Source: Rugalucina vietnamica
Lineage: Eukaryota > Mollusca > Bivalvia > Lucinida > Lucinidae
Direction of reading: 5' to 3'
DNA: 64,000 nt
Assembly (NCBI GenBank): GCA_964017185.1
Contig: OZ024883.1
Location: 2,914,001-2,978,000 of the forward strand
Shown here: positions 2,843 to 58,166 of the stretch, one piece after another
Position numbering within the stretch: the stretch's first letter is position 1
How the letters are laid out: each line of letters starts with the position of its first letter
Program-made: the position numbers and the translations under genes
Notes under the pieces: model-generated
Databases searched by the model: none
What the model was told of the DNA's origin: nothing
Seen by the model: only the letters and a program-made list of their open reading frames with translations

Positions 2843-4567
2843 TGGCGCTTGATTCAGCCCACTAAATGATATATGTATCAACAATGGAACATACATATAT
2901 TTTAAAATAAATCTCAGGCCGACAAAAGTTTTTCCATCAAGTTATTATACAAGTTATATCACTACAAATTAAAGCACGAGAACGATTTGTTCGTTTGGTG
3001 CTAAATACGTCCCAGTCAACACATTCGGTTATGTCGGGACGTCACCGTGTCAGCGGTCTCCATTTTATGTTGACTTCCATCCAACATTGGGGTGCCATGA
3101 CATGCGAAATAAGGTTTGAAATTTGGCACCCAAGTAACAAGCAAAAGTTTATATGTATGGATGGTTTGACTCAACCACTTTTCAAGGATAGGCTCAGGCC
3201 TTTTAACGGCGGTTAACGAGTAATCATATGGTCGGTCAGTCAGAATAAGTTTTGCCTAGAGGCACAAACAGTCAATAGAATCTTCCTTTGGTGTTTTCCC
3301 TTAAAGCCCATCTGGAGACATAAACAAATCATAGTCAGCAAAACGAGTTCTATATTTTTGTGTGTATACGTGAATCTCTGAATGACCAGGAATACATGTA
3401 GTTACATTTAACGCTATATGCATATATCACAAAAAGACGTGGGCTGAAAGAATAGAGCATTTGAATAATCGATAATCTTCTATTCGGGCTGCCAAATACT
3501 AGTATACATTATTAGATTTCAGTCAACAAAGGCGTCACATGTTTCAATCAATTTGTCCCTGCCAACAAATCTTGTGCTGCAAGGATCTGTTGTAAGACTG
3601 ATATGGAAAACCCCTTGAATCGGTGTTCAGATAGGCAATCATTAGAATGGTTACACGCAATCCCGAAATCCAAATGAGTTATCAAAAGCAGGATGGATAA
3701 ATCAGTTCTGTTACGGGTAGTTTTTCCTTTGGCATATGGACTTAATTGTATCACGAGATGTCAACTTGCAAGATTAAATATCAACAATATAATTCTTTAA
3801 CTAAACCTTCAATCTTGAATAGTTAAAGCTGTTTCTGGTACCTATAATCTCGTGTTCACATTAGCCATAAATATAGGAACAAACACTAAAGGGACTAGAT
3901 GTGTATACTGAAGTTAAGCAGCAAGTTGCTACACTGGGTTAGTATTGGTCAAATTGCACGCCCTAACGTCAATTAGCACACTCACAGAAATTAAGCGTTA
4001 AGATTGTAATCATTTAAGTTTCTGCAAGTGAAATACTTATAAGACATCTTAAGATATGTGGTGTAACTTGTAATGGCAAGATGAAGGTCAGACTATTTGA
4101 TTAACGGTTCATATGGCGATGAATTTCGGCAATTTCTATATCTTTGCAACAGTGTAGCATGAGCAGGCATGAAAATGAGACAAAAAGACAAGCAACATTG
4201 TTTCCGAAAGGGATTTTGTCGTCAAGGAAAACAACATGCATCAAAGTAGTGATATCACGGTTCTTATTTTAATTTATCACGATAGCATTGCAAATGCATT
4301 AGTTAAATTGCACTCCAGTCGTCAATTGGTACGCTTGTAAAATTTTGATTCCAATTTCTTGTAACCAAAGGTTATCTTTTATACACAATACCTTCAACCA
4401 GTAATGTGTACTCTAAACTTGGTATTTTATTTTCAACACCGCATATGGAATGTGTACATGACGTAATTCAGGCATTTTTAGACATGTACATTCACCAAAT
4501 AACCCAGTATTTCAAACGCAAAAACTGATTACTACATACTTTTATAAACTTTTCATGTAATATGAGT
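2843..4567. other. Unassigned sequence, no gene seen
   Basis: No recognisable coding region. Two loosely similar segments, 3946-3985 and 4303-4340 (both near AAATTGCAC...CGTCAATT), suggest an old direct repeat. Frames at 2995-3216 and 3754-3548 match no family I know. Confidence 0.4.
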
Positions 4568-4775
4568 TCCTGTAAAATCCCCAATCATAGGCGCATCATC
4601 TGACATTCTCCGATTTTTTAATGGATTTAGAATAAGGAAAATATTTTACCTTGAACTGGTTGACCCAGTAAAATTCTCTCTATTTACGTCGGTCAACTCC
4701 GGCACCGGAAACCGTCAACTTCACTTACAATGGAGCACCGGCGGTGTACAAATTGACCGTTTCCCAGGCGTGTAT
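4568..4775 (-). repeat. Arm 2 of the inverted repeat pair (partner 365-585)
   Basis: The reverse complement carries the same ordered blocks as 365-585, with scattered substitutions and small gaps. It contains GGAGCACCGGCGGTGT and CATCTGACATTCTCCGAT on the plus strand. Confidence 0.6.
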
Positions 4776-4979
4776 AGGCCGTTTTTGTCGTCAGTGATTA
4801 ACAAAACGTGATTCCATACTGCATGACAGATTCAGATTGCACAATCTCTCTAACATCGTTATGGATCTACATGAGAGTTAGCTACGGATGATAAGATAAG
4901 TAAAATATTTCTTGAAGTCATTAAAGAACATTCCATTTCAAGTTCAATAAAACTTGCGACTGGCAATTAAAGTGTGTTT

Positions 4980-5494
4980 CCTAGTGTCTGATAATGGTTT
5001 ATCGCAGATAATTTGCAACTGTTTAAATCCAGATGAAATACTTTCTTGTCATAATTGAGCATTTAGCTCGTCGAAAAATGTGCAGCAAAATAATTCAAAA
5101 TCGGTTGACATTAAGTTCTGGTCAAAAACATTTTTGAAGAGGGATTTTCTGTACAAAAATCTCACGAAAGGGAAATAAATATTTTCCCGCTAAAATTATT
5201 TAATTCTTGGTATTTCATTATGATTGCTCAAAATCATTATAAAATGACACAGAATAACTTACCTGAGACAAAAACTTATGTAAAGTACCCATTTTCATGA
5301 TCATGGATTAACTCCCTTGCCAATGCAAAAAACCCTATATAAAATTCATTTTGGCCATAAAAACTTTACCTGCTGGCCGATTTTCAAAATTTTGCAGGTC
5401 CTTTTAGGACAAACTAAGGTCAAGATTTTGACATGTAAATAACTTTCCTGTCGTCCTCCAAATGAAACTTTTCTGCTAAAACCATTATCAGGGG
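4980..5494 (-). mobile_element. TIR element, family F copy 1 (non-autonomous)
   Basis: The left end reads CCTAGTGTCTGATAATGG and the right end, reverse-complemented, CCCCTGATAATGG. The inverted termini run on with weaker similarity for about 35 bp. The interior matches 34572-35178 in the opposite orientation, for example AAATGCTCAATT, GGGAAAATATTTA and GATCATGAAAATGG. No transposase frame. An AT-rich MITE-like element of about 515 bp. Confidence 0.65.
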
Positions 5495-6303
5495 CAAATT
5501 TTTAAACTATAAATGTGTAGCATCTGTAAAAAAATAATGGTTAGATCATTTGGAAGCAGTAAAACAGGCAAAAAGTGACCCAAAAGTGTACAATATCGGG
5601 TAATGAACCCCCATAAGTGACCATTTACAAACTGCCGATGGAAACCAAACATTTGCGCTGCAAGTTCAAGACATTACAGCAGGATACATATTGTTTAAAT
5701 CAAAGACATATATTCCCAAAAGGGGCTAACTTATCAAAACGCCTATCTCCACTTCATCAAAATATAGTCCATACTGTATCCCTTTGAATGTTTTATTGCT
5801 TCCAAAGGATCAAACCTTTATATTTTATTATTTATCTTTATGTTGTGTGGCGATTCGGTCTGCCTCTCTGTTGTGCTGGACAGAGTTATCCATCTTGTTC
5901 ATCATGCGTGATGAGAATTTTTTATGTTATGTCATTAGTTGTCCCTGTGTTCGACCGCTGTTTGGTTTGGGCTTTAAGTATCAAATCCTGGGTGTTCTGT
6001 TCTTACTTTATTATGACTTTAATTACATAGGTTTATAAGATCTATGGATGTTTGAATATTGTTTTCAGGGAACGGGACAACTTACCAAAATGTCCAAAGG
6101 TAGCGTTGGTCACATAATATGTCACGTCTAACATTCAGCAACCGCATGTCACGTCTAACATTCAGCAACCGCACCAATTCACAGCATGCTCTACATCAAA
6201 CTTCACTGACAACCCGTTATCGACTCAGACGCAAGAGAAGTCCGACATTCGCGCTAACATGTGACAGGAGGATTCGCTCCGGTACAAGATTCTAGATAGT
6301 ATT
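5495..6303. other. Unassigned sequence with a 27-bp tandem duplicate
   Basis: No gene recognised. At 6120-6146 and 6147-6173 the 27-bp unit starting TGTCACGTCTAACATT occurs twice perfectly. Frames at 5784-6038 are AT-rich and match nothing I know. Confidence 0.5.
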
Positions 6304-6398
6304 GATCGTTAGTTTTGTTTTTTCCCACCTCGGTTTTTGGAGTGGGAATCTTTTTCTGATTGCGCCTTTTCCTGATCTTTGCCTACTTGTACTTTTTG
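6304..6398 (+). mobile_element. Family B retroelement, 3'-end fragment
   Basis: Carries the 3'-terminal block of family B: CCCACCTCGGTTTTTGG, AGTGGGAATC, TGATTGCGCC and TGCCTACTTGTAC. The reference copy for the family is 12036-13368. Confidence 0.8.
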
Positions 6399-6524
6399 AT
6401 AAATACAGTTAGTGTTTAGCTACCGATATGGCGTAATTTCGTCGAAACTAGTATTGTTTACTATACAACGGTATGGCCCAACCCCCTTCTCATTAATATG
6501 TTCGCTGCTCTTTAAGGATCTTAG

Positions 6525-6570
6525 TTTTTTTTTTTTTTTTTTTTTTTTTTTTGTTTTTTTTTTTTTTTTT
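6525..6570. repeat. Poly(T) tract
   Basis: 46 bases of T broken by one G. Simple sequence, possibly the tail of an old retrocopy, but no retrocopy is recognisable beside it. Confidence 0.95.
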
Positions 6571-7897
6571 CTATAGGATACCTTAGACTAACTCCTTGGA
6601 ATGAATTATTTTTTTTTTATTTTGCCAGTTTTCGATGTGGGCAATCAGAAAGGCAGCTGTTGTTGTGCCCATTGACCTTTTTAGAATAATTGACATTCAG
6701 TGACTTACCAACAAATGACATGTGCTGTAAACGTTATTTGAGCTTTTCTTGGGCGTACAATTGTCCTGACCACATAAATGTTTAATAATTTATGAAGCGT
6801 ATTTTCTTAACATTTCTATTGGTTTCCATGCGCAGACTGAGCAGACAATAGGGATTCAAAAGCGTACATGTAACTGTGTCTCTATGCACATTTTGAATAG
6901 TCATGCCTTTCTTTTTATGACAGTTTTAGCATATTAGAATTACCACTGTTTAGTGTTTTAACTTCATTATAATAGTGGTAGATGCCATGAAACCTTTTAT
7001 TCAATTACACGCTTCGCTGAAACGGAAAATTGACCCTTAAAAAGGTCCCTATTTTATCATTTGAAAGGTTTTCTTTTCTTTTGAGGGTAATGTCATTTGT
7101 CGTTTGCATACCTTTTTACAGCAGCCTCTATTGAAATTTGACAAACACATTGTAAAATTTATATGGATGCAAATTGTGATTTTATCACTGTCAATTTTAT
7201 ATTTATGACTTTGATTTTTGAAAAAGATTTCAGTTTCACTTTGCAAGCTTCAGCTAATTTTCTTTCAAAAAAATAAACGAACACAATAAATATCTATAGA
7301 TGGAAGCTAAATATTTAGTTGCTTACCATTTATTTAAGGTGTTTATTGCGATTTTGTGAGTTTTATTGTTTCGAACTAGAATAAGTTAAAAACGCATATA
7401 ATACATACATGTAATTGAGCAAGGGGCTTTAAGTTCATTTTTTACTTTTCTTACTATCTTCATTGTTTTTAAACAATTTAAAGATAAAAGTACAGAAATT
7501 TCAAGTTTAACGTCTTACTGTTAATCCTCTGTACCATTATGAATCAGCTACGTGCTTTACGATGTCTTTGACTATGAACAGTTTTGCCAGTTCAGTGACG
7601 CTTTACCAGTTCCGAATCGCCCGTGTTATTTTCAAATATGGCCCACAGTGATGCAAATTAATTGTAGTTTTGATTTTGAAAGCTTGGTTACTATTTGCCA
7701 GGGCAATAAATACACACGATTCACGATTTCAACTGCACAAAAATTCCGCTTGGAAGATCTTTGCGGCAAATTCATACTACGTAGAACTAACGTTGGAAAA
7801 ATCCTCCTATCAGTGACAAACCGGCAAAGGTATCTGTATAATTAATTTACAAACTAACTTGTTCTTTGTTGGAGATTTTTTTCAATTCAGTTCGAAG
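6571..7897. other. Unassigned AT-rich sequence
   Basis: No repeat family or known gene. A 97-codon frame at 7552-7845 begins at a GTG and shows no domain I can name; it could be chance. Confidence 0.4.
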
Positions 7898-17757: not shown

Positions 17758-20100
17758 ACGTAAAACCGTCTTTCATAGTACAAGACAGTTTTCCATAAAA
17801 CAGTTCTTTCTTCAGCTGCAAGCACCTTAGGCCATCCATCTCGCAAACATCAAGACTGGTTTAATGAGAATGATGACGAAATTCAGAGGTTTCTTGAAGA
17901 AAAGCACCGATTGCACAAGGCACATCAAGATGATACTAGCTCAGTATCAAAGAAAGCAGCCTACAGCAACATTTGTAAGACAGTCCAGACTAAGCTTAGG
18001 GACATGCAAGATTCCTGGCTGAGGAAGAAAACAGAAGAAATTCAGTCTTTTGCGGATAGAAAGGACATGAAGAAATTTCATGATGCACTGAAAACCATTT
18101 ATGGTCCAAAGAGTTCTGGAGCCACCACATTGCTCAGTGCAGATGGAAACACTCTTCTCACAGATAAAGAAGCTATCTTGGAAAGGTGGGCAGAACACTT
18201 CAATAGTGTGCTTAATCGACCATCAAGCATCAATGAGGATGCAATCGACAGACTTCCACAGATAGAGTGCAATGTTCTGTTAGATGAATTTCCTACCGTT
18301 ACGGAAACAAGAAAAGCAGTTCAACAACTATCATCTGGCAAAGCCCCAGGTGCAGATGCAATTCCTGCCGAAGTTTACAAGGCTGGGGGGCTACCCATGG
18401 CGGAGAAACTGACAGAGTTGTTTCACTGTATGTGGAGAAAGGAGGTTATCCCACAAGAATTTAAGGATGCATCCATAATCCACCTATACAAGCGGAAAGG
18501 AAATCCTCAAGTCTGTGACAATCACAGAGGCATCTCCCTCCTATCAATTGCTGGGAAGATACTTGCAAAAATTCTGTTGAATCGTCTGAATGTTCATCTT
18601 GATCAGACGGGACTTATCCCAGAAAGTCAATGTGGATTCAGAAAAGACAGAGGGACAATAGACATGATATTCACAGCAAGACAGCTTCAGGAGAAATGCC
18701 AAGAACAGAATGTAGATCTATACATGACGTTTGTTGACCTCACCAAAGCTTTTGACACTGTTAGTCGGGATGGACTCTGGAAAATCATGGCCAAGTTTGG
18801 CTGTCCACCCAGATTCATAGTAATGGTGCGGCAGTTTCATGATGGCATGCAGGCACGTGTGCAAAATGATGGAGAGTTCTCTGAACCATTTGAAGTAACA
18901 AATGGGGTCAAACAAGGCTGTGTTCTGGCACCAACACTGTTCAGCATGATGTTTTCTGCCATGCTTATGGATGCTTTTCAGGACAGTGACACTGGTTTTC
19001 CAATCAGGTACCGTTTTGATGGCAACATATTCAACCTCAGAAGGTTGCAGGCCAAAACTAAGGTCCAGACTGATGTGCTAGATGAGCTCCTCTATGCAGA
19101 TGATATGGATAAGAATGCCAGCACAGAGGCAAAAATGCAAAGAGCCATGGATCAAGTCTCACAGTCATGTGATAACTATGATCTCACAATCAGCACAAAA
19201 AAGACAGAGGTTGTACACCAACCAGCGCCCGGAAAGCCATATAATGAACCAACCATCACTGTGAATGGGCAAAAACTGAAAGTTGTTGACAAGTTCACCT
19301 ACCTGGGAAGCACTCTCTCCAGAGCAGTGCATATTGATGATGAGATCACTGCCAGAATTGCAAAGGCTAGTGTGGCATTTGGACGACTCCGTGCAAATGT
19401 CTTGGAGCGAAATGGAATCAAGCTTGACACCAAGCTGAAAGTCTACAAGGCTGTGGTACTGCCAACCCTCTTGTATGCATGTGAGACCTGGACAGTATAC
19501 CAACGCCATGCAAAGAGACTTAACCATTTCCACTTAAGCTGTTTGAGAAAGTTGTTAAAAATCAAGTGGCAGGACAAGATTCCAGACACAGAGGTCCTGA
19601 CGAAAGCAGGGATGCAAAGCATGCATACAGTCTTAAAGCTAGCACAGCTAAGATGGACTGGCCATGTTTTAAGAATGCCTGATGCGCGACTTCCAAAGAA
19701 AGTTTTCTATGGAGAACTACAGGAGGGAAAGCGCTCTCAAGGTGGCCAGAAGAAACGCTACAAAGACACCCTCAAAGCCTCTCTGAAGGATTTCGAAATA
19801 CCAATGGGGTCCTGGGAACAGACTGCACAGGAGCGATCAAAGTGGCGAGGTCTCATCAACAAAGGAACAGCTCTTTATGAAAAGAAGAGAATCTGTGAAG
19901 CTGAAAGAAAGCGAAGAGAGCGCAAAGCCAAAACAAATGTGCCACCATCAGACTCTATGACATTGACTTGCTCTACTTGCAACCGACAGTTTAGAGCCAG
20001 AATTGGCCTAGTCAGCCATCAAAGAACTCACCAACACACATCAGCACTATTCAAGAAATAATGATGGTCTTTCTCATTAGTGAGAGACGAACTATCACCT
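17758..20100 (+). mobile_element. 5'-truncated non-LTR retrotransposon (LINE) with open RT frame
   Basis: The coding frame is already open near 17809, where GHPSRKHQDWFNEND is encoded, a linker that in related elements lies between endonuclease and RT. The endonuclease is therefore missing through 5' truncation. The 3' end lies near 20095, shared with the relic at 876-2842 (CTCATTAGTGAGAGACGAAC). Its 3' edge joins a family B 3' end directly. No target duplication was found. Clade: RTE-like or another clade whose ORF2 ends in a zinc finger; not settled by eye. Confidence 0.88.
17911..20061 (+). CDS. Reverse transcriptase with C-terminal C2H2 finger (LINE ORF2, N-terminus lost)
   Basis: 716 codons from the first ATG; the frame is also open upstream to about 17809, so this ATG is not the native start. 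It would copy element RNA at a nicked target. The RT has KDASIIHLYKRKGNPQ and NHRGISLLSIAGKILAKIL (fingers), FVDLTKAFDTVSRDG (about 274-288, first catalytic Asp), NGVKQGCVLAPTLFSMMF, and YADD at 395-398 (remaining catalytic Asp pair). Downstream are LLYACETWT and RWTGHVLRMPDARLP, typical thumb and connection motifs. At the C-terminus (about 688-708) is a finger, C-X2-C-X12-H-X3-H (CSTCNRQFRARIGLVSHQRT then H), probably for nucleic-acid binding. The lysine and arginine-rich stretch just before it (KKRICEAERKRRERK) supports that. No stop or frameshift, so insertion was recent. Endonuclease absent, hence not self-sufficient. Confidence 0.85.
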   Translation: MHKAHQDDTSSVSKKAAYSNICKTVQTKLRDMQDSWLRKKTEEIQSFADRKDMKKFHDALKTIYGPKSSGATTLLSADGNTLLTDKEAILERWAEHFNSVLNRPSSINEDAIDRLPQIECNVLLDEFPTVTETRKAVQQLSSGKAPGADAIPAEVYKAGGLPMAEKLTELFHCMWRKEVIPQEFKDASIIHLYKRKGNPQVCDNHRGISLLSIAGKILAKILLNRLNVHLDQTGLIPESQCGFRKDRGTIDMIFTARQLQEKCQEQNVDLYMTFVDLTKAFDTVSRDGLWKIMAKFGCPPRFIVMVRQFHDGMQARVQNDGEFSEPFEVTNGVKQGCVLAPTLFSMMFSAMLMDAFQDSDTGFPIRYRFDGNIFNLRRLQAKTKVQTDVLDELLYADDMDKNASTEAKMQRAMDQVSQSCDNYDLTISTKKTEVVHQPAPGKPYNEPTITVNGQKLKVVDKFTYLGSTLSRAVHIDDEITARIAKASVAFGRLRANVLERNGIKLDTKLKVYKAVVLPTLLYACETWTVYQRHAKRLNHFHLSCLRKLLKIKWQDKIPDTEVLTKAGMQSMHTVLKLAQLRWTGHVLRMPDARLPKKVFYGELQEGKRSQGGQKKRYKDTLKASLKDFEIPMGSWEQTAQERSKWRGLINKGTALYEKKRICEAERKRRERKAKTNVPPSDSMTLTCSTCNRQFRARIGLVSHQRTHQHTSALFKK

Positions 20101-32100: not shown

Positions 32101-32188
32101 TGAATCTAAACCGATAATGAATTTCTGATTTCTCAGAATACCCTCGCTGATCTCAAAGGACCAAAGGAAATATAATCTACACTATGTA

Positions 32189-33728
32189 CACGGCTACCGA
32201 ACAGTTTAATGCGTAACCGCGGTTAAGAAAAGAAATCCGATTCACGTCCTTCCGGTTTTGCGTGTGAGGTGCAGTAAAAGGTAAACAAACTTTCGCAGCT
32301 CGCGTTTCCAAGTAATTTATTTTCACCTGGAGAAAGTTATTAAAATTTTCTCAATGCAATTTTGTTAGTTATAAATTGATCTTATCGTATCTCAAAGGAT
32401 TTCCAGATTTGTCTCCTTATAATCGTGATTTTTATTCCCTCCTCCAAAATGCATGTTGAGATTGCATTGTACATGAAGAAAATATGGGTCAGTCATAGGG
32501 ATATTTTTAGATCCCCGCTAACTGCGTCATTATAAACGGACGGCAAGGCAGCGAACAGATGATTTAGTTCTGTGAACACTTTCCTTGCCAGTGACCGCTG
32601 CATTCTATGTATATGTGGCTAAAAGCTGTGTCAAAATTTCGGTCACGCATTTAATCATTAGAATGATAGCAAAATAATCGACATTAAAAGCACCTGTATT
32701 TTAGTTTCTCTCTCGAGTTCTACGTTTAACAATTTAATTATCACAGTGTCTCGTCATCTTTGTATGGTTTTTACCTCTACAAATCAAGTTTTATTGAAGG
32801 GTTTTTGACTTACAGTGGTATGCAAGAAAACACAAACAAACGAGAATCTGCATATACAAAAGCCTTAAATATACCTTTGTTTTCCTATTGTTCATGGTTT
32901 TAGTGAGTGATAATGCTAAATATTATAAACCCAGTTAATGCTTATAGACAACCCCTCTCAAGGAAAATGAAGAAAAAGAAATCCAAAATTGGTTTATTTG
33001 TGATGTTTGCAGTGAGAATACTTGGTATGTATCAAAATACAAACATTTTTGCAACAAACATGCAATACAAAACACTGTTATTTACATGTATGGTATTCCT
33101 GTTTATGATAAAACTTAGACTTTAAAACATTGTGAATACTGTAATTTGCTTTTTTTCGTTTGCTTTCATCTAAAACGCTGTACAGGGAATGTTAAATATC
33201 ATAAAACAGGCAGAGGTTTTCAAACATATCTTGAAATAAATCCCTCTTATTTTAATAATTAAATGCTTAACCATTTTTTTCTTCCCTTCGAAAAATAAAT
33301 GTTGAGCCCTAAGAAAAGTGAATACTGTGACAGACATCAGTTGTAATTTATTTAATATACAACTACAAATTTGTTGCGGAACAATCACAAAAACATGATA
33401 TTTAACAGCAAATTGCCCAATTTTTAGTTGTATTTTGCCGTTCTTGACCGTGTTGAAACACATGTTTCGAAGGAGGGAACAAATAACCCCCAAAAACATC
33501 AAGTAATGTTGCAAACTGTTTTGGTGCTGTCTAACAATGATAAATAAGTGACAAAATAGCATTCTTAGATTTTTGATACCGTTCTGTACTACAAAATAAT
33601 TATCGATCGATCCGAGTAGTGTATGTTTTGTTTACATTTTGTTGCACCTCACACGCAAAACCGGAAGGACGTGAATCGGATGTCTATTCTTAACCGGCGG
33701 TTACGCATTTAACTGTTTGGTAGCCGTG
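32189..33728. mobile_element. 1.54-kb TIR transposon with ~100-bp ends and ATGTA target duplication
   Basis: The left end starts CACGGCTACCGAACAG and the right, reverse-complemented, CACGGCTACCAAACAG. The two stay near 91% identical for about 102 bp, including CCGATTCACGTCCTTCCGG and TTTTGCGTGTGAGGTGCA. ATGTA lies on both sides (32184-32188, 33729-33733). The interior frames (32907-33125 plus, 33562-33170 minus) are AT-rich and not a recognisable transposase, so the element is non-autonomous. A 5-bp duplication with ends starting CAC is a combination known from Transib/ProtoRAG elements, but the rest of that terminus is not matched. Confidence 0.88.
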
Positions 33729-33824
33729 ATGTAGCTTTACTTAAGATTTATCATCCAATCATATTGGCTTAAAAGCGTCGGAGTTCCCTGTGTTATTTGA
33801 TGTCTGGGATATGTTTACATGTAT

Positions 33825-34060
33825 TGAGCCTCCTCATGAGAAAACCAACAATCTGCATAGGCGAAAACAAAGGCGCAGATCAGCTTCGCAGTAACTGCGA
33901 AGCTGATCAGCGCCTTTGTTTTCGCTACTCGGATAGTACAATTCCTCTTCTACTTAAATCCGAAATTTCAAGCTTGTAGCTCTTTTCTGTGCTTGTACAG
34001 CCCGGTTTGTGTCGGACCTGTTCTGAAACCACACCGTTGGTTTTCCCACGAGGCGGCTCA
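33825..34060 (+). mobile_element. Palindromic MITE, family D copy 1
   Basis: TGAGCCTCCTCATGAG...CACGAGGCGGCTCA termini; inner hairpin GGCGCAGATCAGCTTCGCAG / CTGCGAAGCTGATCAGCGCC with the turn at TAA. About 236 bp. Confidence 0.9.
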
Positions 34061-34571
34061 TTATTATAAGTCACCATGATAAGTTATCCCTGTCTCCTAC
34101 AGTTGCAGTTGTAGAAGATAATGTAGTTACGTTCGTATACTTATAACTTACGATACCACTTACATGTACCACTTTTAAGCCTTGAAGTAACCCAGATGAC
34201 CAAGGGCGTCTTAGTATGTCCAATTCGACACCCGCATACTACCTGAAGGCTCTGTCGACATAGAAATCCTGTTGCATTTGAATAAGATAATGCAGTTGTA
34301 GCTATATTTTTGTTGGGAAAGAGTTATTCCGCCAGCACTGACCATCAAGGAAGTCTGAAGGTACATCTTACATTTTAAGTTAGACGAAGATCAGAGACGG
34401 ATCGTTTGACGGATCATTTAGAGGGGGTGGGGTCTAATTTTCTCTATTAGCCAAATATTTTCTCCTACCTGTAAATCAGGTTGTAGCCTGAAAACCAGAT
34501 TTTTCCGACAAACAAACCGAGTGCTTTTTTGCAGTCATTAACACTAACAAGTTAAAGTTAAAGTTTAAAAA
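34061..34571. other. Unassigned sequence
   Basis: No gene recognised. Confidence 0.4.
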
Positions 34572-44968: not shown

Positions 44969-45013
44969 AATATATATGAGGTCTCGTCAGAACTGGCGAG
45001 AATGGGTATAAAA

Positions 45014-45227
45014 TGAGCCGTCTCGTGGGAAAACCAACAATATGGTTTCCGAACGGGTCTGACACAAATCAGACTGTACAATCACAGAAGCAGGCTAGAA
45101 GCATGAAATTTCGGATTTAAGAAGAAGAGGGATTGTACTATCCTTGTAGCGAAAATAAAGGCGCTGATCTGATCTGCGTCTTTGTTTTCGCCTATGCAAA
45201 TTTTTGGTTTTCTCATGAGGCGACTCA
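45014..45227 (-). mobile_element. Palindromic MITE, family D copy 3, inverted next to copy 2
   Basis: TGAGCCGTCTCGTGGG to CATGAGGCGACTCA, reverse orientation, 45 bases after copy 2. The inner hairpin has shrunk to GGCGCTGATCTGATCTGCG. Confidence 0.85.
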
Positions 45228-47417: not shown

Positions 47418-48215
47418 TATCACTATAGACACAATTTGACGAAATTGCTACAGATACGACTGCAAATGTGATGGAATTGCCACAGACACAACTTTAAATT
47501 TGGTTGAATCGCTATAGATACAACTGCAAACTTGGTGAAAACGCTATGGACACAACAGCAAACTTGGTTGAAACGCGATATAGACACAACTACAAATTTG
47601 GTGTAAAAAGCTATAGACACAACTGCAAATTAGACACAACTGCAAATTTGGTGTAAAAAGCTATAGAGACAACTGCAAATTTGGTGTAAAAAGCTATAGA
47701 GACAACTGCAAATTTGGTGTCAAAAGCTATAGACACAACTGCAAATTTGGTGTAAAAAGCTGTAGAGACAACTGCAATTTTGGTGTAAAAAGCTATAGAG
47801 ACAACTGCAAATTTGGTGTCAAAAGCTATAGACACAACTGCAAATTTGGTGTAAAAAGCTGTAGAGACAACTGCAATTTTGGTGTAAAAAGCTATAGAGA
47901 CAACTGCAAATTTGGTGTAAACAGCTATAGAGACAACTGCAAATTTGGTGTAAAATGTTATAAATTTGGTGTAAAATGTTATAGAGACAACTGCAAATTT
48001 AGTGTAAAAAGCTATAGACACAACTGCAAATTAGACACAACTGCAAATTTGGTGTAAAAAGCTATAGAGACAACTGCTAATTTGTTGTAAAAAGCTAAAG
48101 AGACAACTGCAAATTTGGTGTAAAAAGCTGTAGACACAACTGCAAATTTGGTGTAAAAAGCTCAACTGGATACTTGTGATAGAATCGCTATAGACACAAT
48201 TTCACTATTGGTGAA
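47418..48215. repeat. 33-bp minisatellite, about 24 units
   Basis: Unit GCTATAGAGACAACTGC followed by AAATTTGGTGTAAAAA. Units in the middle are near-identical; those at 47418-47600 and after 48050 are diverged, and some are shortened. Because 33 is a multiple of three, the minus strand stays open for 136 codons (11-residue period SIAFYTKFAVV). That is most simply a consequence of the repeat. Confidence 0.95.
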
Positions 48216-57317: not shown

Positions 57318-58166
57318 ATGAGTTCTAGCGATATATCAGGGGAATTGTCCCCACGTGGGAGTCTCATGGACGAAGATAACGGAATGAGCCGTCACGGGGA
57401 TCACATGCACGGCGAACACGTAAAACGCCCAATGAACGCTTTTATGGTGTGGTCACGTGGCCAAAGAAGAAAAATGGCACAAGAAAACCCTAAAATGCAT
57501 AATTCTGAGATCAGCAAACGCTTGGGAGCCGACTGGAAACTGTTAACGGAACACGAGAAAAAGCCTTTCATTGATGAGGCAAAGAGACTACGGGCGCTAC
57601 ATATGAAAGAACACCCGGATTATAAGTACCGCCCACGACGAAAACCAAAATCGTTACTGAAAAAGGATAAGTACGCATTTCCGTTGCCAATGTTACCCGG
57701 ATTGGGACCGGCTGCGTTCGGGGGACTACCACCGTTGACGGGACTACCACCCATGAGCCTTGGCAGCTCACCAGACAGTGCTAGTGCTGTTAACCAGGCC
57801 GCGATACTCAGTGAGAAAATGCGGGCGTTTCACCCGCCAACATCATCACATCCATTATTTTCACATTTAGAAAGCAGTGCTGGGAGTAAAATCGACAGTT
57901 CTAACTTCAACTTACGGACTTCTCTCTCCGAACAAATGTCTCAGATGTCACACCTCTCCGCCAGTTCTCTCTATAGTTCCTATCTCTCGGCACAGAGTGC
58001 GGCGGCGCTGGGCTCGATCCCGCCCACAGCCCACTCCCACCCAGGACAGTACATAGTGCCATGTTGCCCACCGGGTTATCTCCCTAGTTCCCAGGATGTA
58101 CACAGACCTGTGGCTTACGTTCTAGTGAAACCAGAGGACCATTATAGGCATTCGTCCGTTATATAA
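57318..58166 (+). CDS. SoxB2: SoxB2 transcription factor (Sox14/Sox21 type), single exon
   Basis: 282 residues, intronless as usual for SoxB genes. The HMG box at 35-106 runs from [18 protein letters not shown] through [16 protein letters not shown] to HPDYKYRP; it bends DNA at ATTGTT-type sites in the nucleus. Directly after it is [20 protein letters not shown] (105-124), the group B stretch in its Sox14/Sox21 form. The C-terminus is rich in Ser, Pro and Ala ([23 protein letters not shown]) and ends YRHSSVI. SoxB2 proteins mostly act as repressors in neural development and balance SoxB1 activators. The start is the first ATG (GGAATGAGT) after in-frame leader. Length fits the family (about 240-280). 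The GC-richer coding sequence stands out from its AT-rich surroundings. AATAAA signals follow at 58168 and 58177, though the true 3' UTR may be longer. Confidence 0.95.

What the first reader, a model, noticed from the sequence alone, without database searches (positions are those of the whole stretch)
32189..33728. TIR transposon with CAC-starting ends and a 5-bp target duplication
Near-identical inverted ends of about 102 bp begin CACGGCTACC, and ATGTA flanks both sides. Five-base duplications with CAC at the terminus are the signature of Transib/ProtoRAG elements, relatives of the RAG recombinase. The rest of the terminus does not match the CACWATG-type heptamer I know, so this may be a divergent or different superfamily. 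Interior non-coding, so a non-autonomous derivative.
Basis: partly seen in the sequence, partly recalled or inferred. Interest (0 to 1): 0.72.

Follow-up and report, generated by a model that had tools for sequence, protein, structure and literature searches.

The report
Abundant non-autonomous DNA transposon, unknown transposase
The feature is one copy of a common, protein-less jumping element that duplicates a 5-letter stretch of target DNA when it inserts; a link to the immune-system RAG recombinase is not supported, and the enzyme that moves it was not found.

Summary
Window 32189-33728 is a 1540-bp element with inverted ends starting CACGGCTACC, flanked by ATGTA on both sides. A 31-bp end pattern with up to 3 mismatches occurs 870 times forward and 864 times reverse in the 1.09-Gb host genome, control 0. 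Of 53 distinct copies with both ends located, 40 have an exact 5-bp duplication and 5 a 6-bp one; shuffled flanks average 0.87. The 27 copies aligned are 0.8-2.9% from consensus, though others are about 8-9% away. The interior shows no coding constraint.

The RAG/Transib reading is not supported. The end scores 8 of 17 against the protostome RAG-like consensus, as 80% of random CAC-starting sequences do. Duplications are AT-rich (GC 20% against 36.5%), and the target resembles CC-WWNWW-GG. RAG1-like core sequence was found at two loci; the one I could read lacks these ends. No parental element was found, but ten candidate long spans were not fully read. The superfamily stays open.

The parts
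32184..32188 (.). left target-site duplication, ATGTA
   Evidence: family-wide 5-bp rule
32189..32290 (+). left terminal inverted repeat, starting CACGGCTACC
   Evidence: genome-wide matches
32291..33626 (.). interior, non-coding; the longest frame of the consensus drifts neutrally across copies
   Evidence: no Pfam match at E 0.01 for window 33170-33562 (-)
33627..33728 (-). right terminal inverted repeat, ending GGTAGCCGTG
33729..33733 (.). right target-site duplication, ATGTA

Best explanation
It is one copy of a non-autonomous cut-and-paste DNA transposon family, a long MITE-like element of about 1.55 kb, with on the order of 870 copies in this genome if most ends are paired. Shown: ends, target duplications, end count, low divergence of the copies aligned, lack of coding constraint, target preference. 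Inferred: a DDE-type transposase encoded elsewhere binds the roughly 113-bp ends, cuts at the CAC/GTG tips and joins them to target DNA with a 5-bp stagger (sometimes 6), favouring an AT-rich 5-mer with C on its 5' side and G on its 3' side; gap repair makes the duplication. The superfamily is not identified. My split: hAT5 about 35%, Transib/RAG-like about 13%, another CACTA-type enzyme about 7%, something else or undescribed about 45%.
For: 870 forward and 864 reverse end matches, control 0. Of 53 copies, 40 have exact 5-bp and 5 exact 6-bp duplications; shuffle mean 0.87. The 27 copies aligned are 0.8-2.9% from consensus. In the longest frame substitutions fall 80/94/92 on the three codon positions; synonymous/other/stop counts are 69/189/8 against 64.1/191.6/10.4 expected; 15 of 27 copies have a net length change there that is not a multiple of three. 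C/G just outside the duplication in 43 of 80 flank positions, p 6e-13, on both sides at once in 9 of 40 copies; duplication GC 39 of 195 bases, p 7e-7.
Against: No parental element was found, so movement in trans is inferred from the pattern. Eight of 53 copies lack an exact 5- or 6-bp duplication, which I read as later mutation or rearrangement. The low divergence comes from copies chosen as best matches to the window copy; copies found by their ends include several only about 91-92% identical to the consensus (L051, L057, L059, L061, L077; L091), so the family also has an older or diverged part.
Confidence: 0.93

Rival explanations
1. The mobilising enzyme is a hAT5-type transposase, the hAT group defined by 5-bp duplications.
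For: hAT5 makes 5-bp duplications and hAT6 makes 6-bp ones (PMC12730594). hAT5 is named among transposons enriched in piRNA clusters of a pond snail (PMC6128900, one passage). This genome has many hAT genes: 116 matches, 150 of 199 candidates scored, several with open frames over 500 aa.
Against: The nearest of the 39 hAT matches on contigs C1-C6 to any of the 100 listed exact ends is 28.1 kb away. This is weak: 1634 of 1734 ends were not listed, and on C6 the listed ends stop at 11.4 Mb. I recall hAT ends as usually starting CAG or TAG (recalled, not tested). No hAT5 end sequence was available to compare.
Confidence: 0.35
2. A Transib-type or RAG-like (RAG1L/RAG2L) transposase mobilises the family.
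For: CAC tips and 5-bp duplications. The wider CACTA-Mirage-Chapaev-Transib group mostly has CA..TG ends and 2-5 bp duplications (PMC12730594, passages). The host has a RAG1L-RAG2L pair in convergent orientation with an open RAG1L frame of 782 aa. The end has CAAAC six bases after CAC, where published RAG-like ends have it three bases after (PMC7204232; PMC9435367; passages); chance of CAAAC in that stretch is about 1%, noticed after the fact.
Against: End at 8/17 against the protostome RAG-like consensus, which is chance. AT-rich duplications. Only 1 of 40 exact duplications fits the CANTG core of the Drosophila Transib motif. RAG1L found at two loci, the C11 pieces 53% and 56% identical to C9, against hundreds of element copies. 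The C9 locus has none of these ends and no CAC..GTG pair with 5-bp duplications between its first 900 and last 2100 bases of 9.5 kb.
Confidence: 0.13
3. The family belongs to another known superfamily with atypical duplication length, or to an undescribed one.
For: CACGG ends, 113-bp repeats, 5-bp (sometimes 6-bp) duplications and a CC-WWNWW-GG target were not matched in full by the groups I read about.
Against: Only a few groups were compared, mostly through passages of papers, and the parent is missing.
Confidence: 0.45

Closest known systems
MITEs / non-autonomous TIR DNA transposons
   Same: Inverted ends, target duplications, many copies, no coding constraint.
   Different: At about 1.55 kb it is long for a MITE (size range recalled).
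hAT5 (hAT superfamily with 5-bp duplications)
   Same: Duplication length (PMC12730594).
   Different: No hAT gene linked to these ends among those compared; hAT5 end sequences not available to compare.
Transib / RAG-like (ProtoRAG, RAGL) transposons
   Same: CAC tips; 5-bp duplications; host carries RAG1L/RAG2L genes.
   Different: End at chance level against the protostome consensus; AT-rich duplications and different target motif.
Ginger2/TDD
   Same: Long inverted repeats; [quoted passage not shown]
   Different: Ginger ends follow TGTNR; these start CAC.

Membership tests
Non-autonomous TIR DNA transposon | terminal inverted repeats with target-site duplications in many independent copies | tested here: met
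   40 of 53 copies exact 5 bp, 5 of 53 exact 6 bp, 8 of 53 neither; shuffle mean 0.87
Non-autonomous TIR DNA transposon | no transposase encoded | tested here: met
   neutral pattern in the longest frame; no Pfam match for window 33170-33562; shorter frames were listed but not searched
Transib / RAG-like | 5-bp target duplication | tested here: met
   5 of 53 copies have 6 bp
Transib / RAG-like | ends begin CAC | tested here: met
   consensus end CACGGCTACC
Transib / RAG-like | end matches the published consensus beyond CAC | tested here: not met
   8 of 17 positions against CACTWMCAAACKTYKBB; 80% of random CAC sequences do as well. CACWATG, quoted in the finding: mismatch by eye
Transib / RAG-like | GC-biased duplications or CCANTGG target | tested here: not met
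   GC 20% against 36.5% in flanks; 1 of 40 fits CANTG
Transib / RAG-like | RAG1/Transib transposase between matching ends | tested here: inconclusive
   RAG1L core found at two loci; C9 locus lacks these ends; C11 locus could not be read; Transib itself sought only through RAG1 queries
hAT5 | 5-bp target duplication | tested here: met
hAT5 | hAT transposase between matching ends | tested here: inconclusive
   nearest of 39 hAT matches on C1-C6 is 28.1 kb from the nearest of 100 listed ends; 1634 of 1734 ends unlisted
Ginger | ends follow TGTNR | tested here: not met
   ends start CACGG; TGTNR from PMC2836005

The most novel reading that the evidence does not exclude
The host's RAG1L/RAG2L pair, which has an open RAG1L frame, mobilises this large family in trans through divergent CAC ends. 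That would make it a RAG-driven family of hundreds of copies in an invertebrate.
Probability: 0.06. Interest if true: 0.8.

Novelty: new member of a known kind. Interest (0 to 1): 0.3.

Why it matters
It corrects an attractive reading: CAC tips and a 5-bp duplication alone do not mark a RAG relative, because the rest of the end, the composition of the duplication and the target motif all disagree. The measured target preference (about CC-WWNWW-GG) and the 5/6-bp stagger are handles for identifying the enzyme. That the same genome holds a RAG1L-RAG2L pair makes a direct cutting test worthwhile.

Tried and rejected
Parental element. I fetched 40 copies around full or partial matches, 30 loci around end matches and 18 longer stretches, one already held. 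Spans over 1.7 kb with both ends located that could be read (L043, L047, L079, L080, L082, L083, L085, L087, L088) are element sequence interrupted by inserts. L081 was read except for its last 395 bp and shows the same. Six stretches (L084, L090, L092-L095) show one end only within the piece fetched. Long frames in L079, L088, L090 and L092 look like reverse transcriptase or other retrotransposon proteins by eye; no family search was run on them. Of 32 adjacent +/- pairs of exact ends on C1 to C6, 18 are 2 kb or longer. Nine of these were not read at all (C1:23207627, C3:58573550, C5:18170312, C2:45476692, C3:20298915, C4:41540645, C2:49031458, C2:49248278, C2:60187470). Three were read in part: C1:97785645 (L040), C1:62324400 (L092, first 4.6 of 7.5 kb) and C2:62016911 (L081).

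Coding interior: rejected. RAG ends at the C9 locus: none found; the inverted repeats at L096 771-840 and 7792-7861 are foldback sequences that each also pair with themselves, so I do not read them as transposon ends. A paper search for CACGGCT with transposon and inverted repeat gave 5 papers, none on a eukaryotic transposon family by title (listing only). A search with CACGG, Transib, TIR and non-autonomous found 54 papers; none of the 15 listed holds CACGG (listing only).

Full report
What was checked. The element at 32189-33728 is present as described: inverted arms, CACGGCTACC ends and ATGTA on both sides. The host genome has 1.09 Gb in 47 contigs and is unnamed; a SOX-type HMG-box gene and a B-box protein in the window point to an animal, which is an inference. 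The element is one of a large family. The 31-bp consensus end, up to 3 mismatches, has 870 forward and 864 reverse matches in the genome and none for the reversed-pattern control. How many ends are unpaired was not counted. The whole-element search scored only 40 of 1420 first-look candidates and the end search 40 of 1919, so those lists are samples.

Duplications. I collected every distinct pair of ends 300-8000 bp apart in loci L009-L095, leaving out L096, which is the RAG locus: 53 copies. Of these, 40 have an exact 5-bp duplication, 5 an exact 6-bp one and 8 neither; six of the 8 differ by one base (by eye). Shuffling partners gives a mean of 0.87 and a maximum of 6 in 2000 shuffles (same counts). 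An earlier, stricter count used 29 of 40 fetched copies and dropped 11 with a missing or damaged end: 20 exact 5-bp and 4 exact 6-bp.

Target. The 39 copies with exact 5-bp duplications and enough flank were laid out as target sites. Duplication GC is 39 of 195 bases (20%) against 36.5% in flanks, p 7e-7. In the 40 copies the base just outside the duplication is C on the 5' side or G on the 3' side in 43 of 80 positions (p 6e-13), and the next base out in 29 of 80 (p 1e-4); both inner positions fit at once in 9 of 40 copies. The preferred target is thus a loose palindrome, roughly CC-WWNWW-GG. Positions are treated as independent in these tests.

Age and coding. The 27 near-full-length copies aligned lie 0.8-2.9% from their consensus, which suggests recent activity. 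They were taken from the best matches to the window copy. Among copies found by their ends, several are only about 91-92% identical to the consensus, so there is also an older or diverged part. The longest interior frame (153 codons) shows no codon-position or synonymous bias, and 15 of 27 copies carry a net length change there that is not a multiple of three. I conclude that the element encodes nothing that could move it.

Who moves it. The RAG idea was tested in four ways. (a) Sequence: 8 of 17 positions match the protostome RAG-like consensus CACTWMCAAACKTYKBB (PMC7204232, passages read), which 80% of random CAC-starting sequences reach. In its favour: CAAAC occurs in both, but three bases further in here; chance about 1%, noticed after the fact. 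(b) Target: ProtoRAG, Transib and RAG favour GC-biased duplications (PMC8289069, passages), and Drosophila hopper and transib2 prefer CCANTGG (PMC3276498, passages). Here duplications are AT-rich and 1 of 40 fits CANTG. A C just outside the duplication is common to both motifs. (c) Genes: a RAG1 profile gives three matches at two loci. A RAG1L protein query gives the same two loci; its other 49 of 52 matches fall within query residues 4-209, the RING-bearing N-terminal part. Transib itself was not queried with a Transib protein. (d) Ends: the C9 locus, read over 9.5 kb, has no copy of these ends and no CAC..GTG pair with 5-bp duplications around the gene pair. RAG-like mobilisation is therefore unlikely but not excluded.

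hAT5 is another group with 5-bp duplications (PMC12730594, section 12 read; the original descriptions in Repbase Reports were seen only as references). The genome has many hAT genes. The nearest of the 39 hAT matches on contigs C1 to C6 is 28.1 kb from any of the 100 listed exact ends. This is weak evidence, because 1634 of 1734 ends were not listed and on C6 the list stops at 11.4 Mb. Searches for PF14291, PF21787 and PF02992, which I recall as a hAT-like, a P-element-like and a CACTA family, did not complete.

Verdict. A well-supported, ordinary non-autonomous DNA transposon family whose enzyme is not identified. The RAG/Transib label should not be applied on present evidence.

Noticed in passing
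L096 (G000 C9:34093000-34102500), 894-2399 + and 4042-6884 -: The host has a convergent RAG2-like (kelch and PHD) and RAG1-like (RING, RAG1 core; importin-binding match in an upstream frame) gene pair. The main RAG1L frame is open over 782 aa; its best solved relative is RAG1L of entry 6b40, E 1.5e-194. A second RAG1L, in two pieces 6.3 kb apart, lies at C11:21950292-21958865, 53% and 56% identical.
   Followed up: partly
33861-33925: A near-perfect 32-bp hairpin (97% complementary, 1-base loop) just right of the element; the overlapping stretch 33905-34062 recurs inverted at 45012-45169, 86%.
   Followed up: no
17911-20061 and 937-2839: A 716-aa reverse-transcriptase frame and an inverted second copy of the same repeat, blocks 88-92% alike.
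   Followed up: no
47443-48162: Tandem array with a unit of about 33 bp, 16 copies in the best row.
   Followed up: no
57318-58166: SOX-like HMG-box frame of 282 aa without interruption.
   Followed up: no
L048 914-1012; L075 about 791-889: L048, the copy closest to consensus (0.8%), carries an extra segment of about 100 bp at consensus position 704-713. L075 is interrupted at the same place by a similar length; the two segments were not compared. This may mark a subfamily.
   Followed up: partly
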